Shown: piece by piece, positions 1 through 9,290 of the stretch
Layout: the number at the start of each line of letters is the position of its first letter
Numbering within the stretch: position 1 is the first letter of the stretch
Assembly (NCBI GenBank): GCA_029863735.1
Contig: JAOTUT010000041.1
Location: 1-9,290 of the forward strand
Direction of reading: 5' to 3'
DNA from: Ignavibacteria bacterium
GTDB lineage: Bacteria; Bacteroidota; Ignavibacteria; Ignavibacteriales; Ignavibacteriaceae
DNA: 9,290 bases
The notes under the pieces: model-generated
Seen by the model: only the letters and a program-made list of their open reading frames with translations
Databases searched by the model: none
Told to the model about the DNA's origin: nothing
Position numbers and translations under genes: made by a program

Positions 1-896
1 TATTTTGCGCCAGCTTTTCTCAGTTCATCAACTCTCTGTGCAAAACCTTCTTCGCTAACCATACCAAGTCTTGAGTGTCGTTCAAATTCTTTGAATGCAC
101 CTTTCTCAAAAGCTTTAATGACATGTGGCTCTGTTGGATTTGGTAGAACAATATATCCACGTTCGTACAACATCTGAGCTTTTTTGAGTTCCCTTATTTT
201 TACTTCTCCTCCTATATCCTTAGCACCCTGTCCCCATTTCAATTCAACAACCTCGACTCCAAGCTTATCGATGGCGTATTCCTGTACACCGAGTCGTGTA
301 TCTTCAACATTTGCCTGCACTACTATTGCTCCATATCCGTTACGCTGATAATCTTTGTAAAGCTTTACTCTTCTTTTCAAATCAATTGTATCGAATACTT
401 TTCCCCTATTAATTATTGATTCTACATCCATACCGGTTACATTTTCGCCAATCGTTAACCCTGTACCTGCAAGTGCAGAGCCAATTGCTAATCCTTCCCA
501 GTTATTTTTAGCAATATTGGTTGATCCGATTCCCGGAATTATCCACGGATAGCGAAAGTGTAATCCCTTATCGTGACCGAAAGTAACATCGATTCTAACA
601 TTGGGGAAAATGGCCTTATCGCTGTCGGCTTCAACACCGTATGCACCGACTGCAGTTCCCATTATATTAAAATGCGAGTAATCAACCGGATAGTTTTTTT
701 CTGAGGCGGTTGTTATTACACCGAAAGGTTGAGGATAAATTACCTCGTGTCCGCGGTAAGCTGATTTTCCGATTTCACACATACCAATACAGCCATCCAC
801 ACAGGTGACGCACATTCCTGACGATGGTGTTATTGAACCCTCTGTCCGGTTCTTTGTTAAAGTTGCTGCGGAAGAATTAACTCTTGAGTATAACAT
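1..896 (-). CDS. FMN-binding glutamate synthase family protein, C-terminus cut by the window edge
   Basis: The first 298 residues are visible; the reading frame is open at the left edge. The protein resembles the FMN-binding (synthase) domain of glutamate synthase large subunits. Visible family features are the GENVTGMD segment (about 150-157), the VQANVED strand (193-199), ELKWGQGAK (218-226) followed by IGGEVK, and FERHSRLGM (271-279). The rest of the FMN barrel, and any [3Fe-4S] Cys motif after it, would lie outside the window. Before the barrel is a compact four-Cys motif, C29-x2-C32-x3-C36-x3-C40, a likely Fe-S site. No amidotransferase (glutaminase) domain precedes it, unlike bacterial GltB. 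In glutamate synthases this domain turns 2-oxoglutarate plus ammonia into glutamate using reduced FMN. Here the electrons would come from the Fe-S subunits encoded just upstream, which is inference. The start is ATG at 896, 18 bases after the previous stop, with a strong AAAGGAGAT site. Family assignment is confident; the true substrate is not known. Confidence 0.85.
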   Translation of the reverse strand, partial: MLYSRVNSSAATLTKNRTEGSITPSSGMCVTCVDGCIGMCEIGKSAYRGHEVIYPQPFGVITTASEKNYPVDYSHFNIMGTAVGAYGVEADSDKAIFPNVRIDVTFGHDKGLHFRYPWIIPGIGSTNIAKNNWEGLAIGSALAGTGLTIGENVTGMDVESIINRGKVFDTIDLKRRVKLYKDYQRNGYGAIVVQANVEDTRLGVQEYAIDKLGVEVVELKWGQGAKDIGGEVKIRELKKAQMLYERGYIVLPNPTEPHVIKAFEKGAFKEFERHSRLGMVSEEGFAQRVDELRKAGAK

Positions 897-901
897 TTTT
901 T

Positions 902-910
902 ATCTCCTTT
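902..910 (-). promoter_or_regulatory. Ribosome binding site of the glutamate-synthase-like gene
   Basis: AAAGGAGAT lies five bases before the ATG at 896, inside the short gap after the upstream stop codon at 915. It is one of the strongest Shine-Dalgarno matches in the window and fixes this start. Confidence 0.8.
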
Positions 911-914
911 ATCT

Positions 915-1592
915 CTACTTAGGTTTAATTTCACATGCTACACAGGGATCCATGTAACACATCATATTATCAAAATTTTCTTTTTCTAAACAGGGCGGGG
1001 TCAGGTTCATACAACCGCCGCATATTGCTTTATCATGTTCAGTATAAGTACATCTTAACTGACAGGCAGGACAAACGTAAATACAGCCACCACACAAACG
1101 GCATACTTCAGATTTTATGTCGAAAGGAGTACCAATGCTGCGATGATCACCGCGTCCACGGAAACCAATTGCTTTTGCCATCATCTGTTCTTCACACATT
1201 CTTACACAGAGTCCGCACATAATGCAATCTTCGTGTTCTTGTCTGAATCTTTGCTGTCGTACTCCCAATTCTGACGCAATATCCTGGATCACTTTTGATT
1301 GTGGACAGGTTGCAAGCAGAAGTTCAACAATCATCTTTCTTGATTGTACGACACGGTTGGATGCCGTTCTGACATTCATACCTTCCTGAACCAAGGAGGT
1401 GCAAGATGTAACAAGTTTTGATCTTACTCCTTCACCAACTTCTACAACGCAAAGCCGGCAGGCACCATATGGTAAAAGTCCTTCCATATGACATAAGGTT
1501 GGAATAGGAAAACCCATAAACTGGGCCGCTTCTAGAATTGTTGTTCCTTCTTCTACGGATATTATTAATCCATTCAATTTAAGATTAACCAT
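915..1592 (-). CDS. HoxU/NuoG-N-terminus-like ferredoxin subunit (2Fe-2S plus two 4Fe-4S) with Cys-rich tail
   Basis: This 225-residue electron-transfer subunit resembles the small ferredoxin subunit (HoxU) of NAD-linked hydrogenases and the N-terminus of NuoG/HydA. Residues 1-75 form a plant-type ferredoxin fold with [2Fe-2S] ligands C34, C45, C48 and C64. Two [4Fe-4S] motifs follow: C123-x2-C126-x2-C129-x3-C133 and C164-x2-C167-x2-C170-x3-C174. The His-Cys3 cluster that NuoG and HoxU usually carry between these regions is not recognisable; only C96 lies there. The last 50 residues add eight Cys (C177, 181, 191, 194, 201, 212, 217, 220) with two CxxC pairs, perhaps a further cluster or a zinc site. 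The start is set at ATG 1592 rather than GTG 1607, because GAGGAGA lies six bases before the ATG and includes bases of the longer form. It overlaps the upstream gene by 8 bases, implying translational coupling. Likely role: pass electrons between the NuoEF/GltD-like subunits and the glutamate-synthase-like subunit. Confidence 0.88.
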   Translation of the reverse strand: MVNLKLNGLIISVEEGTTILEAAQFMGFPIPTLCHMEGLLPYGACRLCVVEVGEGVRSKLVTSCTSLVQEGMNVRTASNRVVQSRKMIVELLLATCPQSKVIQDIASELGVRQQRFRQEHEDCIMCGLCVRMCEEQMMAKAIGFRGRGDHRSIGTPFDIKSEVCRLCGGCIYVCPACQLRCTYTEHDKAICGGCMNLTPPCLEKENFDNMMCYMDPCVACEIKPK

Positions 1593-4500
1593 GATAAATC
1601 TCCTCACTTTCGATGAGTTCTAATTTCTTATCATCTCTTTGTTCGTGGATAAATTCAAGGTCACACCTCATACATCTGTGTGCTTCATATTTTGCTTGTT
1701 CAGCTGACAAAGTCAGTTCCACCTCATTTAAACTGGATTTTCGTTCTTCTACAGGAATTGTCGGAAGAGAAACTCTCTTAGTTTCTTCTTCAATTACCTC
1801 AACCGGGGGAACATATACTTTTGGCAGCCGTATTTCAGGTGGCTGCTTCAATTCTTCTATCATTAAGTATCTATCTATCATCACTGCCACCTTCTTCCCT
1901 GCTGCAATTGCATCTACAACTGTGTTTGGACCTGTGACAACATCTCCTCCGGCAAAAACTCCATCACAGTTGGTTTGAAGAGTATCTTCATCAACAATCA
2001 AAGTTCCCCATTTATTTACATTGATGTTCATGGATGAGATATAATCGACATCCGGAGTATCGCCAATGGTAATAATCAAAGTATCAAAAAATATAAATTC
2101 TTCTGAACCAGGAATTGGAACCGGGTTTCTTCGTCCACTTGAATCAACATCACCCAATTTATTTTTAATAAATTGAACTCCTGATAGCTGGTTATTTTCG
2201 GAGTGAATTTTTATTGGGGATACTAAGGTTACTAAGTTGACTCCTTCTTCAATTGCAGCATCTATTTCGTGCTGAAGTGCGGGCATTTCCTGTCGGGTTC
2301 GGCGGTATAGTAAAGTTACACTTTTAACATCTTTCTGGCGAAGTGAAACACGCGCAGCATCAATTGCTGAATCGCCACCACCAATTACACCAACACGTCC
2401 TTTAGCAAGATTTTTATTATGCAAGTTGAACTCTTTAAGAAATTCAATTGCCGGGAAAACACCTTTAAGGTCTTCTCCCTCAATATTAAGCAATTTACTT
2501 TTATGAGCTCCCATTGCTAGGAATACAGAATTGTATCCTTGCTCAAATAACTCATCAATAGTAAAATCTCTACCAAGAACTGAATTGGTTTTCAGTGTAA
2601 TATTTTTATCAATCAATGCATCAATTTCTTTTCTTATAACTTCCCGCGGAAGTCTGTATGACGGAATACCGCTGGTAAGCATTCCACCTGGGGTTTCATC
2701 TTTTTCGAATACGGTTATCTTATAACCTTTCAGTGAAAGATAATGTGCAGCAGTTAATCCTGCAGGACCTGAACCAATGATCGCAACTTTAAATTTTGAT
2801 TTTTTGCTGTCTTTATCTCTGACCGGTTTATATGTTGAAGGCTCAATCCGGTCGGTTATAAATCGTTTGAGCGCACGGATTGCAATTGGTTGTCCGCCGC
2901 TAGTTCCCGATCTGCACATATATTCGCAAGGATGACTGCATACTCTTGCACATACAGATGGGAACGGATTTGCTTCCCGGATCGCAAAGTAAGCTTTTTC
3001 GTATTCGCCGACGGCAATATGAGCAATATATCTCCACGCTTCGGTACCTATCGGGCAAGCTGTCTGACACGGAGCGCCAACAAGATCTCTGCATACTCCT
3101 GCCCGGCATTTTTTATTGTTAATATGTTCGAGGTATTCGATTCTATAATATTTAATGGTTGATAAAACCGGGTTGGCTGCAGTCTGACCCAAACCACACA
3201 TTGAAGTGTCTTTGACAACGTGCGCAAGTTCTTCAAGCAGATCTAGTTTCTCAATCGTTCCAAGACCCATCGATATATCTTCGAGCAATTCATGCATTCG
3301 TTGAGTTCCTTTTCTACAAACGAAACACTTCCCGCACGATTCATCCTTTAAGAAATTAGTAAAGTATTTGGCTAAGTCAACCATGCAGGTTCTTTCATCC
3401 ATAACAATCATTCCACCCGAACCCATAATAGAACCCGCAGCTGAGAGACTGTCGTAATCAATAGGCAAATTAAATTTTTCAATTGGAATGCATCCACCCG
3501 AAGGTCCGCCAGTTTGAACAGCTTTAATTTTTGCACTGCCCTGAGCGCCTCCACCCATATCGAAGATAATTTCTTTTATTGAGATACCCATTGGAACTTC
3601 GACTAACCCGGTGTTCTTAACTTTTCCAACTAGACTGAAGATTTTCGTTCCGGAATTTTTTGATGTTCCGATTTTTGAATATTCCTTAGAACCAAGTTTC
3701 AGGATGATAGGAATGTTAGCCCATGTTTCTACATTATTGATGGCAGTCGGTTTGCCGTAAATTCCTTTTTCAATTGGGTAGGGCGGACGCTGCCTCGGTT
3801 CTCCCATTTTACCTTCCACAGATCTGATGAGTGCTGTTTCTTCACCGCAAACAAAAGCACCTGCACCCCTTACAATATTTATATCAAACGAAAAACCTGT
3901 TCCTAAAATATTTTCACCGAGCAGTCCATATTCGTGTGCAAGCCTTAATGCAATTATTAAATGTTTGATTGCCAGAGGATATTCATTTCGAACGTAAATA
4001 ATTCCATCTGTTGTACCGGTTGCATAAGCACCAATTAACATACCTTCTATTATGCTATGCGGGTTACCCTCTAAAAGACTTCTATCCATATATGCACCCG
4101 GGTCACCTTCGTCGGCATTACAAACCAGGTATTTTTCTTTTCCGTTTTTTTGTGCAGCTAACATTTCCCATTTTGTCCCGGTTGAAAATCCTCCACCTCC
4201 ACGACCACGTAAGCCTGAATGTTTTACTTCGTTAACAACCCAATGTGGATCCGATGAATCTATTGCTTTGATAAATGAATCATAACCTCCAACTTCAAGG
4301 TAATTGAACAAACGTATAGGGTCAATTTTTTCATTTATTGAGAGAAGTGTTCGTTTTTGATTTTTGTAAAAAGGAATATCATCCTGTCTTATAATTGGTT
4401 TTCCGGATTCAGGATCATTGAAGAGCAGATCTTCTAAGATTTCTTCCCGGTAAATAGATTTTATGATCCTGCTCATATTTTCTATTGTTACCTTTGGGTA

Positions 4501-4758
4501 GAAAATTCGCGAAGGTTCGATTAATACAGAGGGCTCCATCTCACAGAATCCATGACATCCGGTAATGCGAAGGTGTATTCGATTAGTTAATCCGTTTGCA
4601 ATTAATTCACGTTTGGTTATACGGATAAGATCATTTGCACCGCTTGCTTGTCCGCAAGTCCCGGCAGAGATGACTATAGTTGGAATACTGGTATCATGAT
4701 CAGCAATTATTCTACTTTTTAGTTCTTTTAATTCGTTGATAGATTTTAACTTTGGCAT
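1585..4758 (-). CDS. HydB/NuoF-like NADH dehydrogenase module fused to GltD/NfnB-like NAD(P)H oxidoreductase
   Basis: A 1057-residue fusion. Residues 25-105 are a thioredoxin-like ferredoxin domain with only C35, C68 and C72. Residues 150-360 are the NuoF-type NADH/FMN domain: GLRGRGGGGFSTGTKW (182-197), CNADEGDPGAYMDR (213-226) and GAGAFVCGEETAL (298-310). An SLBB-type domain follows (about 373-425), then a [4Fe-4S] site at C475, C478, C481 and C521. Residues 551-630 form the GltD-type Fe-S domain (C564, C568, C603, C607, C611, C615). The FAD site is GSGPAG (662-667) with E685. The second nucleotide site is GGGDSAIDAAR (793-803), and the GGD motif near 937 closes the FAD fold. A C1029-x2-C1032 pair lies near the end. 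It should therefore hold two flavins and two pyridine-nucleotide sites. The start at ATG 4758 has GGGGG seven bases upstream. The 42-base gap to the NuoE-like gene and the 8-base overlap with the next gene mark an operon. Domain assignments are confident; electron bifurcation is inference. Confidence 0.92.
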   Translation of the reverse strand: MPKLKSINELKELKSRIIADHDTSIPTIVISAGTCGQASGANDLIRITKRELIANGLTNRIHLRITGCHGFCEMEPSVLIEPSRIFYPKVTIENMSRIIKSIYREEILEDLLFNDPESGKPIIRQDDIPFYKNQKRTLLSINEKIDPIRLFNYLEVGGYDSFIKAIDSSDPHWVVNEVKHSGLRGRGGGGFSTGTKWEMLAAQKNGKEKYLVCNADEGDPGAYMDRSLLEGNPHSIIEGMLIGAYATGTTDGIIYVRNEYPLAIKHLIIALRLAHEYGLLGENILGTGFSFDINIVRGAGAFVCGEETALIRSVEGKMGEPRQRPPYPIEKGIYGKPTAINNVETWANIPIILKLGSKEYSKIGTSKNSGTKIFSLVGKVKNTGLVEVPMGISIKEIIFDMGGGAQGSAKIKAVQTGGPSGGCIPIEKFNLPIDYDSLSAAGSIMGSGGMIVMDERTCMVDLAKYFTNFLKDESCGKCFVCRKGTQRMHELLEDISMGLGTIEKLDLLEELAHVVKDTSMCGLGQTAANPVLSTIKYYRIEYLEHINNKKCRAGVCRDLVGAPCQTACPIGTEAWRYIAHIAVGEYEKAYFAIREANPFPSVCARVCSHPCEYMCRSGTSGGQPIAIRALKRFITDRIEPSTYKPVRDKDSKKSKFKVAIIGSGPAGLTAAHYLSLKGYKITVFEKDETPGGMLTSGIPSYRLPREVIRKEIDALIDKNITLKTNSVLGRDFTIDELFEQGYNSVFLAMGAHKSKLLNIEGEDLKGVFPAIEFLKEFNLHNKNLAKGRVGVIGGGDSAIDAARVSLRQKDVKSVTLLYRRTRQEMPALQHEIDAAIEEGVNLVTLVSPIKIHSENNQLSGVQFIKNKLGDVDSSGRRNPVPIPGSEEFIFFDTLIITIGDTPDVDYISSMNINVNKWGTLIVDEDTLQTNCDGVFAGGDVVTGPNTVVDAIAAGKKVAVMIDRYLMIEELKQPPEIRLPKVYVPPVEVIEEETKRVSLPTIPVEERKSSLNEVELTLSAEQAKYEAHRCMRCDLEFIHEQRDDKKLELIESEEIYHG
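1599..1605 (-). promoter_or_regulatory. Ribosome binding site deciding the start of the HoxU-like gene
   Basis: GAGGAGA, six bases before the ATG at 1592, lies inside the 3' end of the upstream fusion gene. It makes the ATG at 1592 much more likely than the in-frame GTG at 1607, which would place this site within the coding region. Confidence 0.8.
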
Positions 4759-4800
4759 AACGTTTCCCCCATTGAAGTTTCACAAACTGAATAATGTAAC

Positions 4801-5649
4801 TTATCCATAAATTCCTCCTGAGAGGTCCAGCATATGTCCTTTACAGCCTCTTTTTGAACATATCTGAATTACTCCGCCGCCTTTAACAATCATCGGAATC
4901 ATAGGTGAACCGCATTCGACACAATTTGCTGCACCTCTTAATTCAGTGTGGCAGTGCGGACAGAAAAAGTTCACAACTATATTTTCGGGAATTTCATATT
5001 CGGATTCGATGTTATAGCTGCCATACAGACTTGATAACCTTAACCAGCCGTGTTTTCTTTCGAAAGAAATTGTAACACGTATTGAAGGATGATAATCAAC
5101 TAAATGATCAGGATCCATAAGGCTGTGGTTACAACGAGCGCAGCTGATTTCAACAGGAAATATTCTTTGATCAGTTTTGATTTCTACTTTGTCTAATCCT
5201 TCGCGTGTTTTATCTAAGATTTGTTTTACTTTAGGTGTGATGACCTTGGAGAAGTAATGACCGTCTGCAACTACGATTGGTCCTAACGCACAAGCACCCA
5301 GGCATGCTACAGTTTCTAAAGTGAATTCCTTATCCTTTGTAGTTTCGCCCGGCCTGACATCAAGACGATGTTCAAACTCTTTTTCGATTGTTGGCCCACC
5401 TCGCACATGACAGGCAGTTCCAAGGCATACGGAAACTAAATGTTTGCCACGAGGTTTCAGGCTAAAAGATCTATAGAATGTTGCAACTCCATAAATATCA
5501 ACAAGAGATTTTCCTGTTTCTTCAGCGACATTTCTAAGTTCTTTTTCAGGAAGATAACCAAACCTTGCCTGGATGTTTTCAAGAATAGAAATTATTCCTT
5601 CCCGAATTTTTATTTTTTCCTTTTCTGGTGTAATTGTAAGAGTGGTCAT
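4801..5649 (-). CDS. NuoE/HydC-like [2Fe-2S] subunit with an eight-Cys zinc-ribbon-like C-terminal extension
   Basis: A 282-residue protein. Residues 1-155 match the 24-kDa NADH dehydrogenase (NuoE) family: a helical N-terminus with FGYLPEKEL, the GVATFYRSF segment (54-63), and a thioredoxin-like [2Fe-2S] site with C75-x4-C80 and C116-x3-C120. NuoE and HydC proteins are usually about 150-180 residues, so the rest is an extension. That extension has four Cys pairs: C170-x2-C173, C230-x2-C233, C243-x2-C246 and C264-x4-C269. The pairs resemble rubredoxin or zinc-ribbon knuckles, and a stretch rich in beta-type residues (190-228) separates the first from the second. The extension may bind zinc or another Fe-S centre and tether a partner subunit; its function is unknown. 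It is the first gene of the four-gene operon and partners the NuoF module encoded next. The ATG at 5649 has only a weak GGGG site seven bases upstream and follows a 320-bp spacer that probably holds the promoter. Confidence 0.88.
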   Translation of the reverse strand: MTTLTITPEKEKIKIREGIISILENIQARFGYLPEKELRNVAEETGKSLVDIYGVATFYRSFSLKPRGKHLVSVCLGTACHVRGGPTIEKEFEHRLDVRPGETTKDKEFTLETVACLGACALGPIVVADGHYFSKVITPKVKQILDKTREGLDKVEIKTDQRIFPVEISCARCNHSLMDPDHLVDYHPSIRVTISFERKHGWLRLSSLYGSYNIESEYEIPENIVVNFFCPHCHTELRGAANCVECGSPMIPMIVKGGGVIQICSKRGCKGHMLDLSGGIYG

Positions 5650-5969: not shown

Positions 5970-7217
5970 TTACACCCAACCTCTTAATTGGCAGGCTTGC
6001 GCCACACGCGCAACTCCAACCAGCATTCCGGCAAGTCTTGGGTGAACTTTTTTCTCCCTGATTGCTTCCTGAACTCGTTTATAAGCAAGAGTTAATTTTT
6101 TATCGAGCTGTTTGTGTACTTCTTCTTCTTCCCAAAAGAACAAAGATTTGTCCTGAACCATTTCGAAGTACGAAACAGTTACTCCTCCTGCACTGGCGAG
6201 AATATCCGGTATGACGTGAACATTGTTTTTAAAGAGAATTAAATCAGCTTCGGGAGTGGTTGGTCCATTTGCGAGCTCACAAACTACACGTGCTTTAATG
6301 TTCTTTGCATTTTTAATGTTGATTGCATTTTCTAATGCTGCAGGGTATAGAATTTCTACATCAAGTTCAAGAAGCTGTTCGTGAGGAATTTCTTTGCTTC
6401 CGGGGAAATTCATTACTGTCCCGGTTTTAAGTTTATGATGAACAAGCTCTTCAGGATCTAATCCGCTCTTGTTAATTATGGCTCCGCGTGAATCACTAGC
6501 AGCAATTAGTTTTCCTCCGCCTAACATTTCTTTATGAAGTAATGCTGCTCGTTGTCCTGCATCACCAAATCCCTGTATTGCAAATTCTTTTGTCGGATCG
6601 AATCCGTATGTTTTGCAAGCTTCGCGAACAGTAATAATTCCTCCTCTTGCTGTTGCATCTCTTCTTCCTTCGGTACCTCCCACCTGCAAGGGTTTATCGG
6701 TAAATACACCTGGGCTGTGCCGCTTGGTAATTGTTTCATACTCATCCATCATCCATGACATAGTCTGAGGATTTGTATAAACATCTGTTGCTGGTACATC
6801 AATATCTACTCCAAGCAGTGGTGATATTCCGCGAATGTATTCCCTTGATAGTCTTTCAAGTTCCGTTTCAGATAATTTTTTTGGATTACATCTTACCCCC
6901 CCTTTGCTTCCTCCAAGAGGTAAATCAACAACTGCAGTTTTCCATGTCATCCAGCAGGCAAGTGCACGAATTGTGTCAACTGTTTCTTCAGGATGAAAAC
7001 GTATTCCACCTTTGGCGGGACCTCTGGCATGATTGTATTGAATTCTGAAAGCCTGAAATATTTTTGTCACTCCGGAATCCATTTTAACCGGTATAGTGAA
7101 ATTAACTTCTATTTGAGGTGTGCTTAAAAATTCTGTTGTTGCATCGTCAAGGTTAAGCAGCTTTGCTGCTTCCAAAACCTGCTGACGCGCTACTTTGAAT
7201 GAATTGTATGATTCCAT
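5970..7217 (-). CDS. Glutamate dehydrogenase (Glu/Leu/Phe/Val dehydrogenase family)
   Basis: A complete 415-residue protein of normal length for hexameric glutamate dehydrogenases. It catalyses reversible reductive amination of 2-oxoglutarate to glutamate in the cytoplasm. Family motifs are GPAKGGIRFHP (66-76, with K69), MTWKTAVVDLPLGGSKGG (90-107, with K93 and the catalytic lysine K105), and VPATDVYTNPQTMSWM (141-156, with D145). The dinucleotide-binding loop GFGDAG (216-221) is followed by D242 after the second strand, and SAGGVTVSYFEMVQ (342-355) lies in the C-terminal part. All catalytic residues appear intact. NAD or NADP preference cannot be decided safely by eye. The ATG at 7217 overlaps the TGA of the upstream ribbon gene by one base (TGATG), with AAAGG nine bases before it, so translation is probably coupled. 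It stands immediately upstream of the operon carrying a glutamate-synthase-like subunit, which suggests a shared role in glutamate and redox balance. Confidence 0.96.
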   Translation of the reverse strand: MESYNSFKVARQQVLEAAKLLNLDDATTEFLSTPQIEVNFTIPVKMDSGVTKIFQAFRIQYNHARGPAKGGIRFHPEETVDTIRALACWMTWKTAVVDLPLGGSKGGVRCNPKKLSETELERLSREYIRGISPLLGVDIDVPATDVYTNPQTMSWMMDEYETITKRHSPGVFTDKPLQVGGTEGRRDATARGGIITVREACKTYGFDPTKEFAIQGFGDAGQRAALLHKEMLGGGKLIAASDSRGAIINKSGLDPEELVHHKLKTGTVMNFPGSKEIPHEQLLELDVEILYPAALENAINIKNAKNIKARVVCELANGPTTPEADLILFKNNVHVIPDILASAGGVTVSYFEMVQDKSLFFWEEEEVHKQLDKKLTLAYKRVQEAIREKKVHPRLAGMLVGVARVAQACQLRGWV

Positions 7218-7423
7218 CAGTTTGAACCTTTATTCTTTGATTTTTCTGAATCTGTTTTCTTTGTGGATGGTATTACATCCAGAATAATCCTGTACCAACA
7301 GCTCTTGCAAACAAGCGCTCTGTCAGTTGCAAGAAGAACTTGCTGCCATGGTGACAGTTTATTACCACAGTGTGGGCATGCACTTGGTACTTCCTCTCTA
7401 TTTGATTTAATTTCTTCGGCCAA
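7217..7423 (-). CDS. Small two-CxxC zinc-ribbon protein coupled to glutamate dehydrogenase
   Basis: This 68-residue protein has C16-x2-C19 (within ACPHCGNKL) and C39-x2-C42 (within VCKSCWYRI), the spacing of a single zinc ribbon. The C-terminal tail is charged and rich in Lys, Ser and Asp and is probably disordered. There is no signal peptide or membrane segment. The start is TTG at 7423, the only plausible start in the frame: the protein contains no internal Met, an in-frame stop lies just upstream, and GGAG sits eight bases before the TTG. The stop overlaps the ATG of glutamate dehydrogenase by one base, so the two are probably made in a fixed ratio. It could be a regulator or binding partner of the dehydrogenase, or a general nucleic-acid-binding ribbon. 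No family function is recognised. Confidence 0.72.
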   Translation of the reverse strand: MAEEIKSNREEVPSACPHCGNKLSPWQQVLLATDRALVCKSCWYRIILDVIPSTKKTDSEKSKNKGSN

Positions 7424-7468: not shown

Positions 7469-9290
7469 TTAAGTGGGTTTTAAAATTATACCTTTGTTTT
7501 CATGCCCATTCATTTTAATTATGATCGGTTTTTTAAATCTAATATGTTTTGTGTAAACCATACTTTCGACTGATCCCTGCTCAAGAAGCCAATCCCAATC
7601 AACAAATCCATTATTCTGAATTGTGTTTACAGTAAAATAACCTACCATAAACGAAGTAATATTCTGAAAAAAGTGTGAACCCTGAGATGGTTCAACGGCC
7701 ATATCTTTAAAAGAAGTTTCAACAATGGCTTTTGCACCAGCTATCTGTTCCCAGGTTACAGGAATTCCAAGCCATGGATCCAATGATCCCCATCTTCCGA
7801 CACCTACAAGCAAATACGGTTTCCCTTCTGAAATCAATTTATTATTAAGCGCGGAAATCTCCGCAGCTACTTCCCTGCTTTTTGCACGATCAAATAAATG
7901 AAAATCAACAACAACTGCATCATAAACATCTTGAATAATTCCATTGCCGAGTACCTGGTTGCTCTGGCAGATTAGTTTATCAGGCTCAATATCTTCAATT
8001 CTAAGTTCTTCAAATTCGTGGCTTACTACAAGTGGTCTCATTTGAAGCAACCCGAACTCTTTCTTCTTACCAGATGGTTTTGAAATATTTACGGCAAATT
8101 CAATTTCGACAGGTGTTCCCATTCCCCAGTTACCCATTTCTAGTAATAGCTCAAGAACATTAGCAAGCGGGAAAAGCTTATTTCTGAGTGTGGGTGCGAA
8201 GGTTACTAAACGTGTTCCGCTTCTTCCAAGTCCGTCAGAAATAGCATCGTTCTCAGGAAGATATGTTGAGCCAACAAATCTTAACGGCCCATCTTTTTCA
8301 GCAATGCTTAACGGAAATGTTTTTACCAGTTTGTCGTATGTAATATTTCCAAAGTCTGTTTTTTCATCAAGCTGCAAAGCAAAGAATTCCATCTGGCTGC
8401 TGTTAAGAGATTCTTTAACTGAATGAAACTGCAGCAAGTCAGTTGAATACTTCGGACAAAATCTTACTGTATTTCCGCCTTCAACAACCCATTTGCCTAA
8501 ACCGAGAGCAGCAGATACAATTCCGTCGGTTGATTTTTGAGGAGGCAATGGATAAAAGTTATATGATTTTGCCACACCGGAAAAATCTGGATAAAATCTG
8601 TTCTCATGATTATTGCCTACCACCTTCTGAATTATCACAGCCATCTTTTCTTCTTCAGAACGGTAAGAGGTAATTCTAATGTAGTTTTTTGCATTCTGAT
8701 AGAATGTTGATGCATAAACTCTTTTAATAGTCGTGAGAAGGTCATTTAGTCTGATGAGAGAATTCGCATTATCGTTTGGAATCATATAGGTCTGATAAAC
8801 ACCTGCAAAGGGATGATACTGAGAATCTTCAAGCAAACTCGATGACCTGACGGCAAGGGGACTTTTGATAATATTGAGGAAGGCTGCAAGTTCGCCCAGA
8901 ATTTCTTCGGGGAATTTTGATGCTTCCAAAAATCTTTGCGTTATTTCTTCATCATCCTCACATTGTAGTGCAAAACTTCGAAGATTATTCATTTCAAGAA
9001 AATCATCAAATACATTTGTTCCAAGTACAATAGCTGGCGGGACATGAATTAACACATCTTCAAACTGATTGCGAAGCTGGTAATCGTTTATAAGTGTGTT
9101 AACAAAACCAAGACCTCTTGCTTTACCACCGAGTGAACCGCCTCCGATTCTTGCAAAGCTACTATCCGGGTCGAAAGTTTCTTTGTTGAAGTCAGTTATT
9201 ATTCCACGCTGGCGTACCATCCGGTAATCATGAACAGAATGAACAAGATGTTCTCTTAATGCTTCTCCTGTTACGTAATCTGAAACTTTT
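7469..9290 (-). CDS. PEP/pyruvate-binding (PPDK N-terminal, ATP-grasp type) domain protein, 5' end beyond the window
   Basis: The frame stays open from ATG 9220 to the right edge. The extra 23 residues (about KVSDYVTGEALREHLVHS onward) read as genuine protein and no Shine-Dalgarno site precedes 9220, so the gene starts outside the window. About 606 residues are visible. Counting from the Met at 9220, the nucleotide-binding domain shows IGGGSLGGKARGLGF (25-39), PLAVRSSSLLED (121-132) with FAGVYQTY (138-145), SGVAKSYNFYP (214-224), ALGLGKWVVEGG (238-249) and LLQMRP (391-396), all typical of the ATP-binding part of pyruvate phosphate dikinase and PEP synthase. A further conserved-looking region is GVGRWGSLDPWLGIPVTW (473-490) and EPSQGSHFFQN (510-520). 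The phosphohistidine domain and the PEP-binding barrel are absent before the stop, so it cannot be a complete PEP synthase or PPDK. Its reaction is unknown. It lies 45 bases upstream of the ribbon gene and is probably co-transcribed with it. Confidence 0.85.
   Translation of the reverse strand, partial: KVSDYVTGEALREHLVHSVHDYRMVRQRGIITDFNKETFDPDSSFARIGGGSLGGKARGLGFVNTLINDYQLRNQFEDVLIHVPPAIVLGTNVFDDFLEMNNLRSFALQCEDDEEITQRFLEASKFPEEILGELAAFLNIIKSPLAVRSSSLLEDSQYHPFAGVYQTYMIPNDNANSLIRLNDLLTTIKRVYASTFYQNAKNYIRITSYRSEEEKMAVIIQKVVGNNHENRFYPDFSGVAKSYNFYPLPPQKSTDGIVSAALGLGKWVVEGGNTVRFCPKYSTDLLQFHSVKESLNSSQMEFFALQLDEKTDFGNITYDKLVKTFPLSIAEKDGPLRFVGSTYLPENDAISDGLGRSGTRLVTFAPTLRNKLFPLANVLELLLEMGNWGMGTPVEIEFAVNISKPSGKKKEFGLLQMRPLVVSHEFEELRIEDIEPDKLICQSNQVLGNGIIQDVYDAVVVDFHLFDRAKSREVAAEISALNNKLISEGKPYLLVGVGRWGSLDPWLGIPVTWEQIAGAKAIVETSFKDMAVEPSQGSHFFQNITSFMVGYFTVNTIQNNGFVDWDWLLEQGSVESMVYTKHIRFKKPIIIKMNGHENKGIILKPT

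What the first reader, a model, noticed from the sequence alone, without database searches (positions are those of the whole stretch)
1..5649. Four-gene operon predicting a multi-flavin complex: NuoE + NuoF-GltD + HoxU-like + glutamate-synthase FMN subunit
The sequence shows tightly packed genes (42-base gap, 8-base overlap, 18-base gap). They combine the NADH-oxidising module of bifurcating hydrogenases (HydB/HydC), the FAD oxidoreductase of NfnB/GltD and a glutamate-synthase FMN domain. No hydrogenase H-cluster domain is present. From family knowledge, NfnAB and the Sporomusa-type Stn transhydrogenase use related flavin modules for electron bifurcation. The presence of a GltS-like subunit as the apparent terminal acceptor is the unusual part. 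The inference is either a bifurcating or confurcating NAD(H)/NADP(H)/ferredoxin enzyme or a glutamate synthase driven by a NuoEF diaphorase.
Basis: partly seen in the sequence, partly recalled or inferred. Interest (0 to 1): 0.75.

Follow-up and report, generated by a model that had tools for sequence, protein, structure and literature searches.

The report
Four-part enzyme linking NAD(P)H and glutamate
Many little-known bacteria carry a conserved four-gene set that appears to wire a glutamate-synthase-like enzyme to an energy-coupling NADH module, and in this version the usual ferredoxin port of that module is replaced by an NADPH port; this may be a new, energy-coupled way of handling ammonia and glutamate.

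Summary
In detail: four minus-strand genes (NuoE, NuoF-GltD fusion, HoxU-like, GltS-like FMN protein cut by the left edge) with the stated gaps. The set is conserved: of 143 classified loci, all 56 GltS-like genes at least 65% identical to the reference with readable upstream have the HoxU-like gene directly upstream; none of 78 more distant ones does. NuoF keeps the B1 and His-containing B2 ligands of the BfuABC/HydABC bifurcating family, but its C-terminal ferredoxin domain is absent and a GltD (FAD, NADP(H), two [4Fe-4S]) stands there. Sister operons with the same GltS-like subunit keep the ferredoxin domain; the alternation needs 8 changes on the GltS-like tree. The GltS-like subunit keeps core glutamate-synthase motifs but lacks [3Fe-4S] ligands (0 of 139), and 35 of 43 operon genomes have no GXGXG match. 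Stand-alone relatives lie near glutamine synthetase in 15 of 42 loci. Best reading: a Bfu-derived complex coupling NAD(H), NADP(H) and a GltS-type reaction, probably ammonia + 2-oxoglutarate to glutamate. Complex formation, substrate, direction and coupling are inferred.

The parts
4801..5649 (-). NuoE/BfuC-like subunit, 282 aa: thioredoxin-like [2Fe-2S] domain (C1 cluster) and a C-terminal zinc-ribbon-like tail (from about residue 165)
   Evidence: PF01257 E 3e-43; best PDB match HydC 8a6t_C E 3e-39; similar tail in L001-L006 and L040, absent in L045 and L050
3112..4758 (-). NuoF/BfuB part of the fusion (residues 1-549): thioredoxin-like N-terminus, FMN/NADH domain, B1 [4Fe-4S] site (C475,C478,C481,C521), B2 site (C458,S496,H545; its C551 and C556 lie just beyond)
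   Evidence: Best PDB match NiFe-HydB 7t2r_B E 1e-193, residues 28-560, constant offset 20 over the B2 stretch; ligands conserved in 7 of 7 operon fusions and 120 of 120 listed homologues
1585..3111 (-). GltD part of the fusion (residues 550-1057): Fer4_20, FAD and NADP(H) Rossmann domains, eight Cys for two [4Fe-4S] clusters; stands where BfuB has its ferredoxin domain
   Evidence: PF14691, PF07992; Cys564,568,603,607,611,615,1029,1032 invariant in 7 of 7 and 120 of 120; GGGDSA motif of the GxGxxA type
915..1592 (-). HoxU/BfuA-like subunit, 225 aa: Cys for one [2Fe-2S] and two [4Fe-4S] sites, no NADH-G_4Fe-4S_3 (His-Cys3) domain, plus a C-terminal tail with extra Cys (about residues 177-220)
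   Evidence: PF13510, PF12838, no PF10588; matches 9mqx_A E 8e-35 and HydA 8a6t_A; each tail Cys kept in 42 of 42 GltD-type operons
1..896 (-). GltS-like FMN-barrel subunit, first 298 aa of about 527 (gene cut by the window edge): N-terminal CxxCxxxCxxxC, KxGQGAKxIGGE motif; no [3Fe-4S] ligands in full-length relatives
   Evidence: 80-86% identical to orthologues in L001-L005; PF01645 on full-length orthologues; motif counts; hhalign to split GltB 93.9% E 1.6e-7

Best explanation
The four genes encode one iron-sulfur flavoenzyme derived from the BfuABC (HydABC-type) electron-bifurcating core. NuoE (BfuC) and NuoF (BfuB) form the NAD(H)-FMN-FeS coupling site. The HoxU-like protein (BfuA) carries electrons between the B1 cluster and a new third-substrate subunit, the GltS-like FMN protein, through an added Cys-rich tail and the N-terminal Cys cluster of the GltS-like protein. 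The ferredoxin domain of BfuB is replaced by a GltD module, so the low-potential branch exchanges electrons with NADP(H) through two [4Fe-4S] clusters and FAD. The GltS-like FMN most likely interconverts 2-oxoglutarate + NH3 and glutamate without a GXGXG partner. Likely direction: NADH and NADPH (ferredoxin in sister operons) jointly drive reductive assimilation of free ammonia when ammonia is low; the reverse, or bifurcation from NADH, is possible at other concentrations. Shown by sequence: gene set, conservation, cofactor-ligand patterns, domain alternation. Inferred: complex formation, substrate, direction, energetic coupling.
For: Order: 56 of 56 GltS-like genes of >=65% identity with readable upstream are preceded by HoxU (42 GltD-fused B, 12 ferredoxin-type B, 2 cut by a contig end), 0 of 78 more distant ones; operon and stand-alone rows are separated by one change. 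Core: B2 His and Cys kept, the residues that PMC9304861 section 6 ties to bifurcation. Slot: ferredoxin domain and GltD alternate beside the same GltS-like subunit, 8 changes; in the sampled BfuB at large 16 changes. Wiring: extra Cys tail of HoxU, each Cys 42 of 42 in GltD-type operons, lacking in 16 of 18 short BfuA reads of loci without the GltS-like gene. Chemistry: KxGQGAKxIGGE 138 of 139 and CxxCxxxCxxxC 138 of 139; profile match to split GltB; within four genes of the GltS-like gene, a glutamine synthetase in 15 of 42 loci and a split Glu_synthase gene in 5 of 42 (41 of these 42 are without the operon), with GATase_2, Glu_synthase, GXGXG, ANTAR and GlnA confirmed by Pfam in L149. Energetics: with a recalled -121 mV, the glutamate couple falls to about -278 mV at 1 mM and -337 mV at 10 uM ammonium, so it can lie between NADH and ferredoxin.
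Against: The sequence evidence that the barrel works on glutamate is family-level: PF01645 matches mainly about 120 residues; the predicted model is weak (pLDDT 62) and its best solved matches are alpha-hydroxyacid oxidases, IDI-2 and IMPDH. The [3Fe-4S] cluster that links GltD to FMN in glutamate synthase is absent (0 of 139). The four-Cys N-terminal B5 site is altered in most members. A GDH-family gene is present in 39 of 43 operon genomes, so these organisms can probably make glutamate otherwise. Loss of canonical GltB is not clearly linked to the operon (phylum of G002: 1 of 19 with the operon vs 3 of 20 without; phylum of G010: 1 of 10 vs 12 of 20). Neighbourhood evidence comes from stand-alone relatives of about 64% identity or less, not from the operon subunit itself. 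I found no biochemistry for any member.
Confidence: 0.48

Rival explanations
1. An uncoupled, dual-nucleotide glutamate synthase: NuoEF (NADH) and GltD (NADPH) are simply alternative electron inputs to the GltS-like FMN, with no bifurcation.
For: GltD is the natural partner of GltS; the ferredoxin domain is absent; NADH to glutamate is downhill at high ammonia.
Against: 12 of 54 resolved operons have a ferredoxin domain in place of GltD, yet keep HoxU and the GltS-like subunit, so GltD is not the obligate partner. The B2 His, which PMC9304861 says non-bifurcating homologues lack, is kept in 7 of 7 and 120 of 120. The [3Fe-4S] relay is missing.
Confidence: 0.2
2. A Bfu-type coupling enzyme whose GltS-like subunit acts on something other than glutamate, for example another 2-oxo acid, imine or small-molecule substrate.
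For: Partial PF01645 match; [3Fe-4S] ligands and, in most operon genomes, GXGXG absent; closest solved folds listed are other FMN barrels; some stand-alone relatives lie beside IclR regulators rather than nitrogen genes.
Against: KxGQGAKxIGGE and GGTG motifs resemble glutamate synthase; GlnA, ANTAR, split GOGAT or GDH near many stand-alone relatives; GDH beside the operon in the window and in L154.
Confidence: 0.22
3. Two enzymes in one operon: an Stn-like NADH/NADPH transhydrogenase (NuoE, NuoF-GltD, HoxU) and an independent GltS-like enzyme.
For: GltD plus NuoEF resembles StnABC; GltS-like proteins without HoxU upstream exist in many genomes.
Against: All 56 closest GltS-like genes with readable upstream are preceded by HoxU; the HoxU tail with extra Cys is kept with the GltS-like partner and lacking in most other BfuA sampled; L045 and L050 keep the set without GltD in NuoF.
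Confidence: 0.08

Closest known systems
BfuABC (HydABC-type) electron-bifurcating family, Type 2 (PMC9304861)
   Same: NuoE/NuoF core with FMN, B1 and the His-containing B2 site; BfuA without the A3-type motif; extra catalytic subunit for the third substrate
   Different: B3/B4 ferredoxin domain replaced by GltD in this variant; N-terminal B5 Cys altered; third-substrate subunit is GltS-like, not named in that paper's main text ('glutamate' 0 hits; supplement not read)
Stn / Nfn-Bfu transhydrogenase (StnABC, PMC10482914; PMC7483475)
   Same: NuoE + NuoF core coupled to a GltD-type NADP(H)-FAD module
   Different: In Stn GltD is fused to the NuoG-like StnC and StnB keeps its ferredoxin domain; here GltD is fused to the NuoF subunit itself and a GltS-like subunit is added
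Glutamate synthase (GOGAT, GltBD; split GltB genes)
   Same: GltD module and a Glu_synthase-type FMN barrel with KxGQGAK and GGTG motifs
   Different: No [3Fe-4S] ligands, no glutaminase or GXGXG in the set; NADH-oxidising NuoEF and HoxU added; N-terminal CxxCxxxCxxxC
NuoF-GltD fusion beside an [FeFe]-hydrogenase subunit (Moorella thermoacetica L015)
   Same: NuoE, NuoF-GltD fusion and a NuoG-type iron-sulfur subunit
   Different: Third subunit is a full H-cluster hydrogenase (Fe_hyd_lg_C) instead of HoxU + GltS-like; I did not look up whether this Moorella cluster is characterised

Membership tests
BfuABC family | BfuC: thioredoxin-like [2Fe-2S] subunit beside BfuB | tested here: met
   PF01257 and HydC match
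BfuABC family | BfuB FMN/NADH domain and B1 [4Fe-4S] site | tested here: met
   PF01512, PF10589; CCCC in 7 of 7 operon fusions, 120 of 120 listed homologues
BfuABC family | B2 [2Fe-2S] site with the diagnostic His | tested here: met
   C458, S496, H545, C551, C556 by constant offset to NiFe-BfuB; His 7 of 7 and 120 of 120; role from PMC9304861
BfuABC family | C-terminal ferredoxin domain of BfuB with B3 and B4 (IPR017896) | tested here: not met
   Window NuoF match to 7t2r_B ends at residue 560 and GltD follows; a ferredoxin domain is there in sister operons L040, L045, L050
BfuABC family | N-terminal B5 [2Fe-2S] site with four Cys | tested here: not met
   Window has S31,C35,G36,C68,C72 where 7t2r_B has Cys at the first and third of these; StnB also lacks two of four
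BfuABC family | BfuA with Fer2 and Fer4-type domains | tested here: met
   PF13510, PF12838; A3-type domain PF10588 not found, as expected for Type 2
BfuABC family | Demonstrated bifurcation or confurcation | not testable with these tools
   needs purified enzyme
Stn transhydrogenase | GltD fused to a NuoG-like subunit (StnC) | tested here: not met
   GltD is fused to NuoF; StnC architecture from PMC10482914
Glutamate synthase (GOGAT) | Glu_synthase FMN domain | tested here: met
   PF01645 over cut-off on three full-length orthologues, partial coverage; hhalign 93.9%; the window's own cut piece alone gives no hit
Glutamate synthase (GOGAT) | [3Fe-4S] cluster ligands | tested here: not met
   0 of 139 GltS-like rows have a Cys within 3 columns of any of the four canonical Cys columns; the window's own copy is cut before this region
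Glutamate synthase (GOGAT) | GXGXG domain or gene | tested here: not met
   next downstream gene in L002, L003, L005 is none; over cut-off in 7 of 43 operon genomes only; the window's own flank beyond base 1 cannot be read
Glutamate synthase (GOGAT) | glutaminase (GATase) domain or gene | tested here: inconclusive
   not in the four genes nor the next downstream gene in L002, L003, L005; genomes were not searched for it
HydABC [FeFe]-hydrogenase | H-cluster domain | tested here: not met
   absent from the four proteins
NfnAB | NfnA (NAD/FAD, [2Fe-2S]) subunit | tested here: not met
   no such Pfam domain in the four proteins

The most novel reading that the evidence does not exclude
An energy-coupled glutamate synthase: a Bfu-derived complex that assimilates free ammonia by drawing electrons jointly from NADH and a lower-potential carrier, NADPH in this variant and ferredoxin in sister operons, paying for low-ammonia uptake with redox energy instead of the ATP of glutamine synthetase. 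The lineage repeatedly exchanged the ferredoxin port of the coupling module and an NADPH port, showing that the bifurcating core is modular at both ends.
Probability: 0.33. Interest if true: 0.86.

Novelty: new variant of a known kind. Interest (0 to 1): 0.63.

Why it matters
Electron bifurcation is a main energy-saving device of anaerobes. The Bfu family is proposed to accept many third substrates, but amino-nitrogen metabolism is not among those named in the parts of the family paper that I read. A conserved Bfu-GltS set in uncultured phyla (in the phylum of L002, titled Zixiibacteriota, 57 of 118 sampled genomes have the GltS-like gene, and all 30 whose upstream I read have HoxU before it) would link redox coupling to ammonia assimilation or glutamate catabolism. 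The natural alternation of ferredoxin and GltD domains at one slot bears on where the low-potential branch leaves the coupling site and offers a direct test by domain exchange.

Tried and rejected
Own genome: none is held for the window, so the missing 3' part of the GltS-like gene was read from orthologues, not from this organism. Rejected: a hydrogenase (no H-cluster); a plain GOGAT (no [3Fe-4S] ligands, no GXGXG in the set); a chance neighbourhood (56 of 56).

L040: I first noted it as a frameshifted fusion (note); it is a ferredoxin-type BfuB (616 aa) in the same operon.

Replacement of GOGAT by the operon: canonical Glu_synthase (E<=1e-50) in 11 of 43 operon genomes; controls without the operon 3 of 20 (phylum of G002) and 12 of 20 (phylum of G010) at E<=1e-20. 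Fisher P 0.60 and 0.017, uncorrected and blind to kinship; not used as evidence. The 40 controls were the non-matching genomes that the listings happened to print. Completeness of the genomes is not given.

Structure: the GltS-like model is weak (pLDDT 62, residues 1-99 under 50), so I attempted no active-site mapping; glutamate synthase is not among the 50 rows printed by each fold search, which excludes nothing. The fusion model (pLDDT 77, pTM 0.57) was not used further. PDB sequence searches with the GltS-like protein or its profile gave nothing convincing (best E 0.51 and 0.046). Rfam: no match in the window (E<=0.1) nor in 8 of the loci around stand-alone genes at gathering score. Two motif tests used poor patterns and were replaced. 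Sigma-54-like sites: good scores in L004, L006 and L154; none fitting in the window, L005 or L045; unremarkable in L002, L003, L040 and L050.

Limits of the sampling: locus lists are capped, so upstream genes were read for 30 of 57 matching genomes in the phylum of G002, for 21 loci in the phylum of G008 (88 of 249 genomes matched) and 31 in the phylum of G011 (76 of 148 matched). HoxU was sought by tblastn with the window's HoxU at E<=1e-4, so a very divergent one could be missed. Two loci counted among the 78 (L259, L285) hold broken or very short reads of the gene; 9 more loci have no readable upstream and are in neither count. In the protein searches only the best 120 of 8000 scored candidates are shown.

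Literature: searches, in the open-licence library only. 'bifurcating glutamate', 'bifurcating glutamine' and 'glutamate synthase bifurcat' gave 0 papers, 'FMN-binding glutamate synthase' with 'NuoF' 0. PMC9304861: abstract, passages, sections 4 (part 1), 5 (parts 1-2), 6 (part 1). PMC10482914, PMC7483475, PMC8097209, PMC5037454: passages. PMC11406978: abstract and outline; none of six terms found. Other papers: listings only. Recalled, from no call: the potential of the glutamate couple (-121 mV), the cell concentrations used, the sigma-54 consensus, and the view that KxGQGAK and GGTG are catalytic or flavin-binding motifs of glutamate synthase. NAD, NADP and ferredoxin potentials are from PMC9304861 and PMC8097209 passages.


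Full report
Observation. The window carries, on the minus strand, NuoE-like 5649..4801, a NuoF-GltD fusion 4758..1585, a HoxU-like gene 1592..915 and the first 298 codons of a GltS-like gene 896..1. Domain calls agree. Upstream, beyond a 320-base gap, lie a glutamate dehydrogenase (7217..5970), a small zinc-ribbon-like ORF and a PPDK_N protein.

The set is conserved. A scan of species genomes with an alignment of the fusion gave 80 loci, the best of 589 or more. The same order, with fusion, is in L001-L005; L006 ends before the HoxU gene; L040, L045 and L050 have the same order with an unfused NuoF that keeps the ferredoxin domain. Titles of these records name Bacteroidetes, Zixiibacteriota, an unassigned Lac Pavin bacterium, Planctomycetota, Spirochaetales, Riflebacteria and Zymogenaceae. 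Of the GltS-like, fusion and HoxU proteins, the GltS-like one is the most conserved: the window's piece is 80-86% identical to L001-L005, against 58-73% for the fusion and 73-76% for HoxU. L007-L080 other than L040, L045 and L050 carry fused or unfused NuoF with other partners and no GltS-like hit in the stretch held.

Searching whole genomes with the GltS-like alignment A2: matches in 11 of 12 chosen genomes; 46 of 247 at E<=0.001 in the phylum of G001, of which only 2 are full-length and strong; 88 of 249 at E<=0.001 in the phylum of G008; 23 of 199, 57 of 118, 2 of 6, 76 of 148 and 27 of 120 at E<=1e-30 in the phyla of G010, G002, G012, G011 and G005. Of the 143 loci that I classified by upstream genes, 57 are at least 65% identical to the reference (L001's protein): 42 have HoxU with GltD upstream, 12 HoxU with a ferredoxin domain, 2 HoxU with a contig end beyond, 1 has no readable upstream. 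The other 86 are under 65%: 78 have no HoxU, 8 have no readable upstream (recount). On a FastTree of 141 rows, operon and stand-alone rows are separated by one change (support 96), while GltD and ferredoxin types among operon rows need 8 changes; well-supported branches alone force at least 5 for either label against all other rows. Exchange of single genes between lineages could contribute. In a BfuB tree of 91 rows, fused and unfused forms need 16 changes; the main GltS-operon clade (19 rows, support 100) contains the unfused L040, while L045 and L050 fall outside it, so the GltS-like/HoxU pair appears with more than one BfuB lineage.

Cofactor sites. The NuoF part aligns to NiFe-HydB 7t2r_B at E 1e-193 with a constant offset of 20 over the relevant stretch, so the B2 ligands given in PMC9304861 (C438, C476, H525, C531, C536) map to C458, S496, H545, C551 and C556. 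B1 Cys are kept in 7 of 7 operon fusions and 120 of 120 listed homologues; the B2 His and three Cys likewise; the fifth position is Ser or Thr in 7 of 7 and in 117 of 120. The paper reports the His missing in 8 of 1558 BfuB and not present in non-bifurcating homologues, and Thr at the fifth position in about two thirds of BfuB. But the His is also kept in the fusions and unfused BfuB of other operons in my set, so it marks the Bfu core, not this enzyme. The N-terminal B5 site is altered in the window and in most relatives (all four canonical Cys in 2 of 7 operon fusions and 23 of 120 homologues); StnB, of an active complex, also lacks two of its four Cys (PMC7483475), so this does not exclude function. 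Eight GltD Cys are invariant in the operon fusions. The second glycine motif of GltD is GGGDSA, of the GxGxxA type that PMC7483475 associates with NADP(H).

HoxU has Cys for one [2Fe-2S] and two [4Fe-4S] clusters, no PF10588 match, and a tail of extra Cys, each kept in 42 of 42 GltD-type operons and in 7 to 11 of 12 ferredoxin-type rows, one of which was truncated in my reading. Short BfuA reads of loci without the GltS-like gene have 0-6 Cys in the last 60 residues in 16 of 18 cases (exceptions L068 with 9 and the cut L027 with 9), against 11-12 in six of seven operon reads; the seventh, L004, has 6 because its frame runs on past the tail.

The GltS-like subunit. Three full-length orthologues score above the PF01645 cut-off, but mainly over about 120 residues; the family aligns to split GltB by profile (93.9%, E 1.6e-7). 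In 139 rows: CxxCxxxCxxxC 138, KxGQGAKxIGGE 138, a DGxxGGTG-type motif 138, Cys at or within three columns of the canonical [3Fe-4S] positions 0. Foldseek and VIA place the weak model among FMN barrels such as alpha-hydroxyacid oxidases, IDI-2 and IMPDH. So it is an FMN-barrel protein related to glutamate synthase with its own N-terminal Cys cluster, not a canonical GltB.

Context of stand-alone relatives. Of 42 loci read around GltS-like genes (one of them, L154, is of operon type), 15 have a protein of the glutamine synthetase cluster, 21 one of a response-regulator cluster that includes ANTAR proteins, and 5 one of the split Glu_synthase cluster within four genes (clusters by BLASTP, named from members scanned with Pfam). 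The loci in none of these three clusters give no support. L149 reads GATase_2 - Glu_synthase - GXGXG - ANTAR - an unscanned 377-aa ORF - GltS-like - GlnA; L153 has GDH next to it. A branch of about 41% identity (Moorella and others) lies between IclR-type regulators. In operon loci L002-L005 a sigma-54-dependent NtrC-type response regulator lies upstream of NuoE (4 of 4 scanned); good sigma-54-like sites were found upstream in L004, L006 and L154, not in the window. These facts favour nitrogen metabolism but do not identify the substrate.

Genome-level checks. In 43 operon genomes: GDH-family gene 39, canonical Glu_synthase at E<=1e-50 11, GXGXG over cut-off 7. As most of these genomes, as assembled, have no GXGXG match, the complex probably does not rely on a GOGAT partner. 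Control genomes without the GltS-like gene also often lack canonical GltB (17 of 20 in one phylum, 8 of 20 in another), so I do not claim replacement.

Mechanism. By homology with Bfu enzymes, NAD(H) reacts at the NuoF FMN; B1 leads to HoxU and the third substrate; B2 leads, in normal enzymes, to the ferredoxin domain. Here that exit is GltD, hence NADP(H). With the recalled -121 mV for 2-oxoglutarate + NH4+/glutamate, 100 mM glutamate and 0.5 mM 2-oxoglutarate, the couple is -278 mV at 1 mM and -337 mV at 10 uM ammonium. It can therefore lie between NADH (-280 mV) and NADPH (-370) or ferredoxin (-500), the place of mid-potential third substrates in known Bfu enzymes. This makes confurcating ammonia assimilation at low ammonia the most economical proposal. 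With the standard value for glutamate, NADH-driven bifurcation to NADP+ would be feasible (-13 kJ) and to ferredoxin not (+12 kJ). None of this is measured.

Verdict. A real, widespread arrangement for which I found no description: Bfu-derived, with two departures from the published definition (GltD for the ferredoxin domain, altered B5), so I file it as a new variant rather than a member. The statement about print rests and on the parts of PMC9304861 that I read; its supplement was not read, and some of its unassigned clades may be the ferredoxin-type sisters.

Noticed in passing
window 5970-7217 (-): Archaeal-type glutamate dehydrogenase (ELFV) 320 bases upstream of the NuoE gene; a GDH and a PPDK_N protein also lie next to the operon, in another arrangement, in L154. 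BLASTP with the window's GDH gave no hit in L001-L006, L040, L045 or L050.
   Followed up: partly
window 7217-7423 (-): Short ORF (68 aa from TTG) with a weak, below-cut-off zinc-ribbon match, its stop overlapping the GDH start codon.
   Followed up: partly
window 7469-9289 (-): Protein with a PPDK_N (ATP-binding) domain, cut by the window's edge; its relative in L154 is 999 aa with a weak response-regulator match near the N-terminus.
   Followed up: partly
L015:8969-15150 (Moorella thermoacetica); fusions also in most of L007-L043: NuoF-GltD fusion next to NuoE and, in L015, a full [FeFe]-hydrogenase subunit: possibly an NADP(H)-linked bifurcating hydrogenase with the same loss of the ferredoxin domain. 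Partners in the other loci were not scanned with Pfam.
   Followed up: partly
L002:5981-7393, L003:6927-8288, L004:3-1361, L005:1933-3288: Sigma-54-dependent NtrC-type response regulator upstream of the operon in 4 of 4 loci scanned, with a GAF histidine kinase in L003; sigma-54-like sites upstream of NuoE in L004, L006 and L154 only.
   Followed up: partly
L142, L149, L153: Stand-alone GltS-like gene inside nitrogen-assimilation clusters with glutamine synthetase genes, ANTAR-type regulator and split glutamate synthase genes (Pfam in L149, by similarity in L142 and L153); function of this paralogue is unknown.
   Followed up: partly
L132, L166, L168, L169, L170: Distant stand-alone GltS-like gene (about 41% identity) with IclR-type regulators on both sides (the downstream one apparently split in L169) and a phosphate propanoyltransferase nearby.
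   Followed up: no
window 4804-5157 (-), NuoE tail: Zinc-ribbon-like C-terminal extension of NuoE with several CxxC pairs, seen in L001-L006 and L040 but not in L045 and L050; role unknown.
   Followed up: partly
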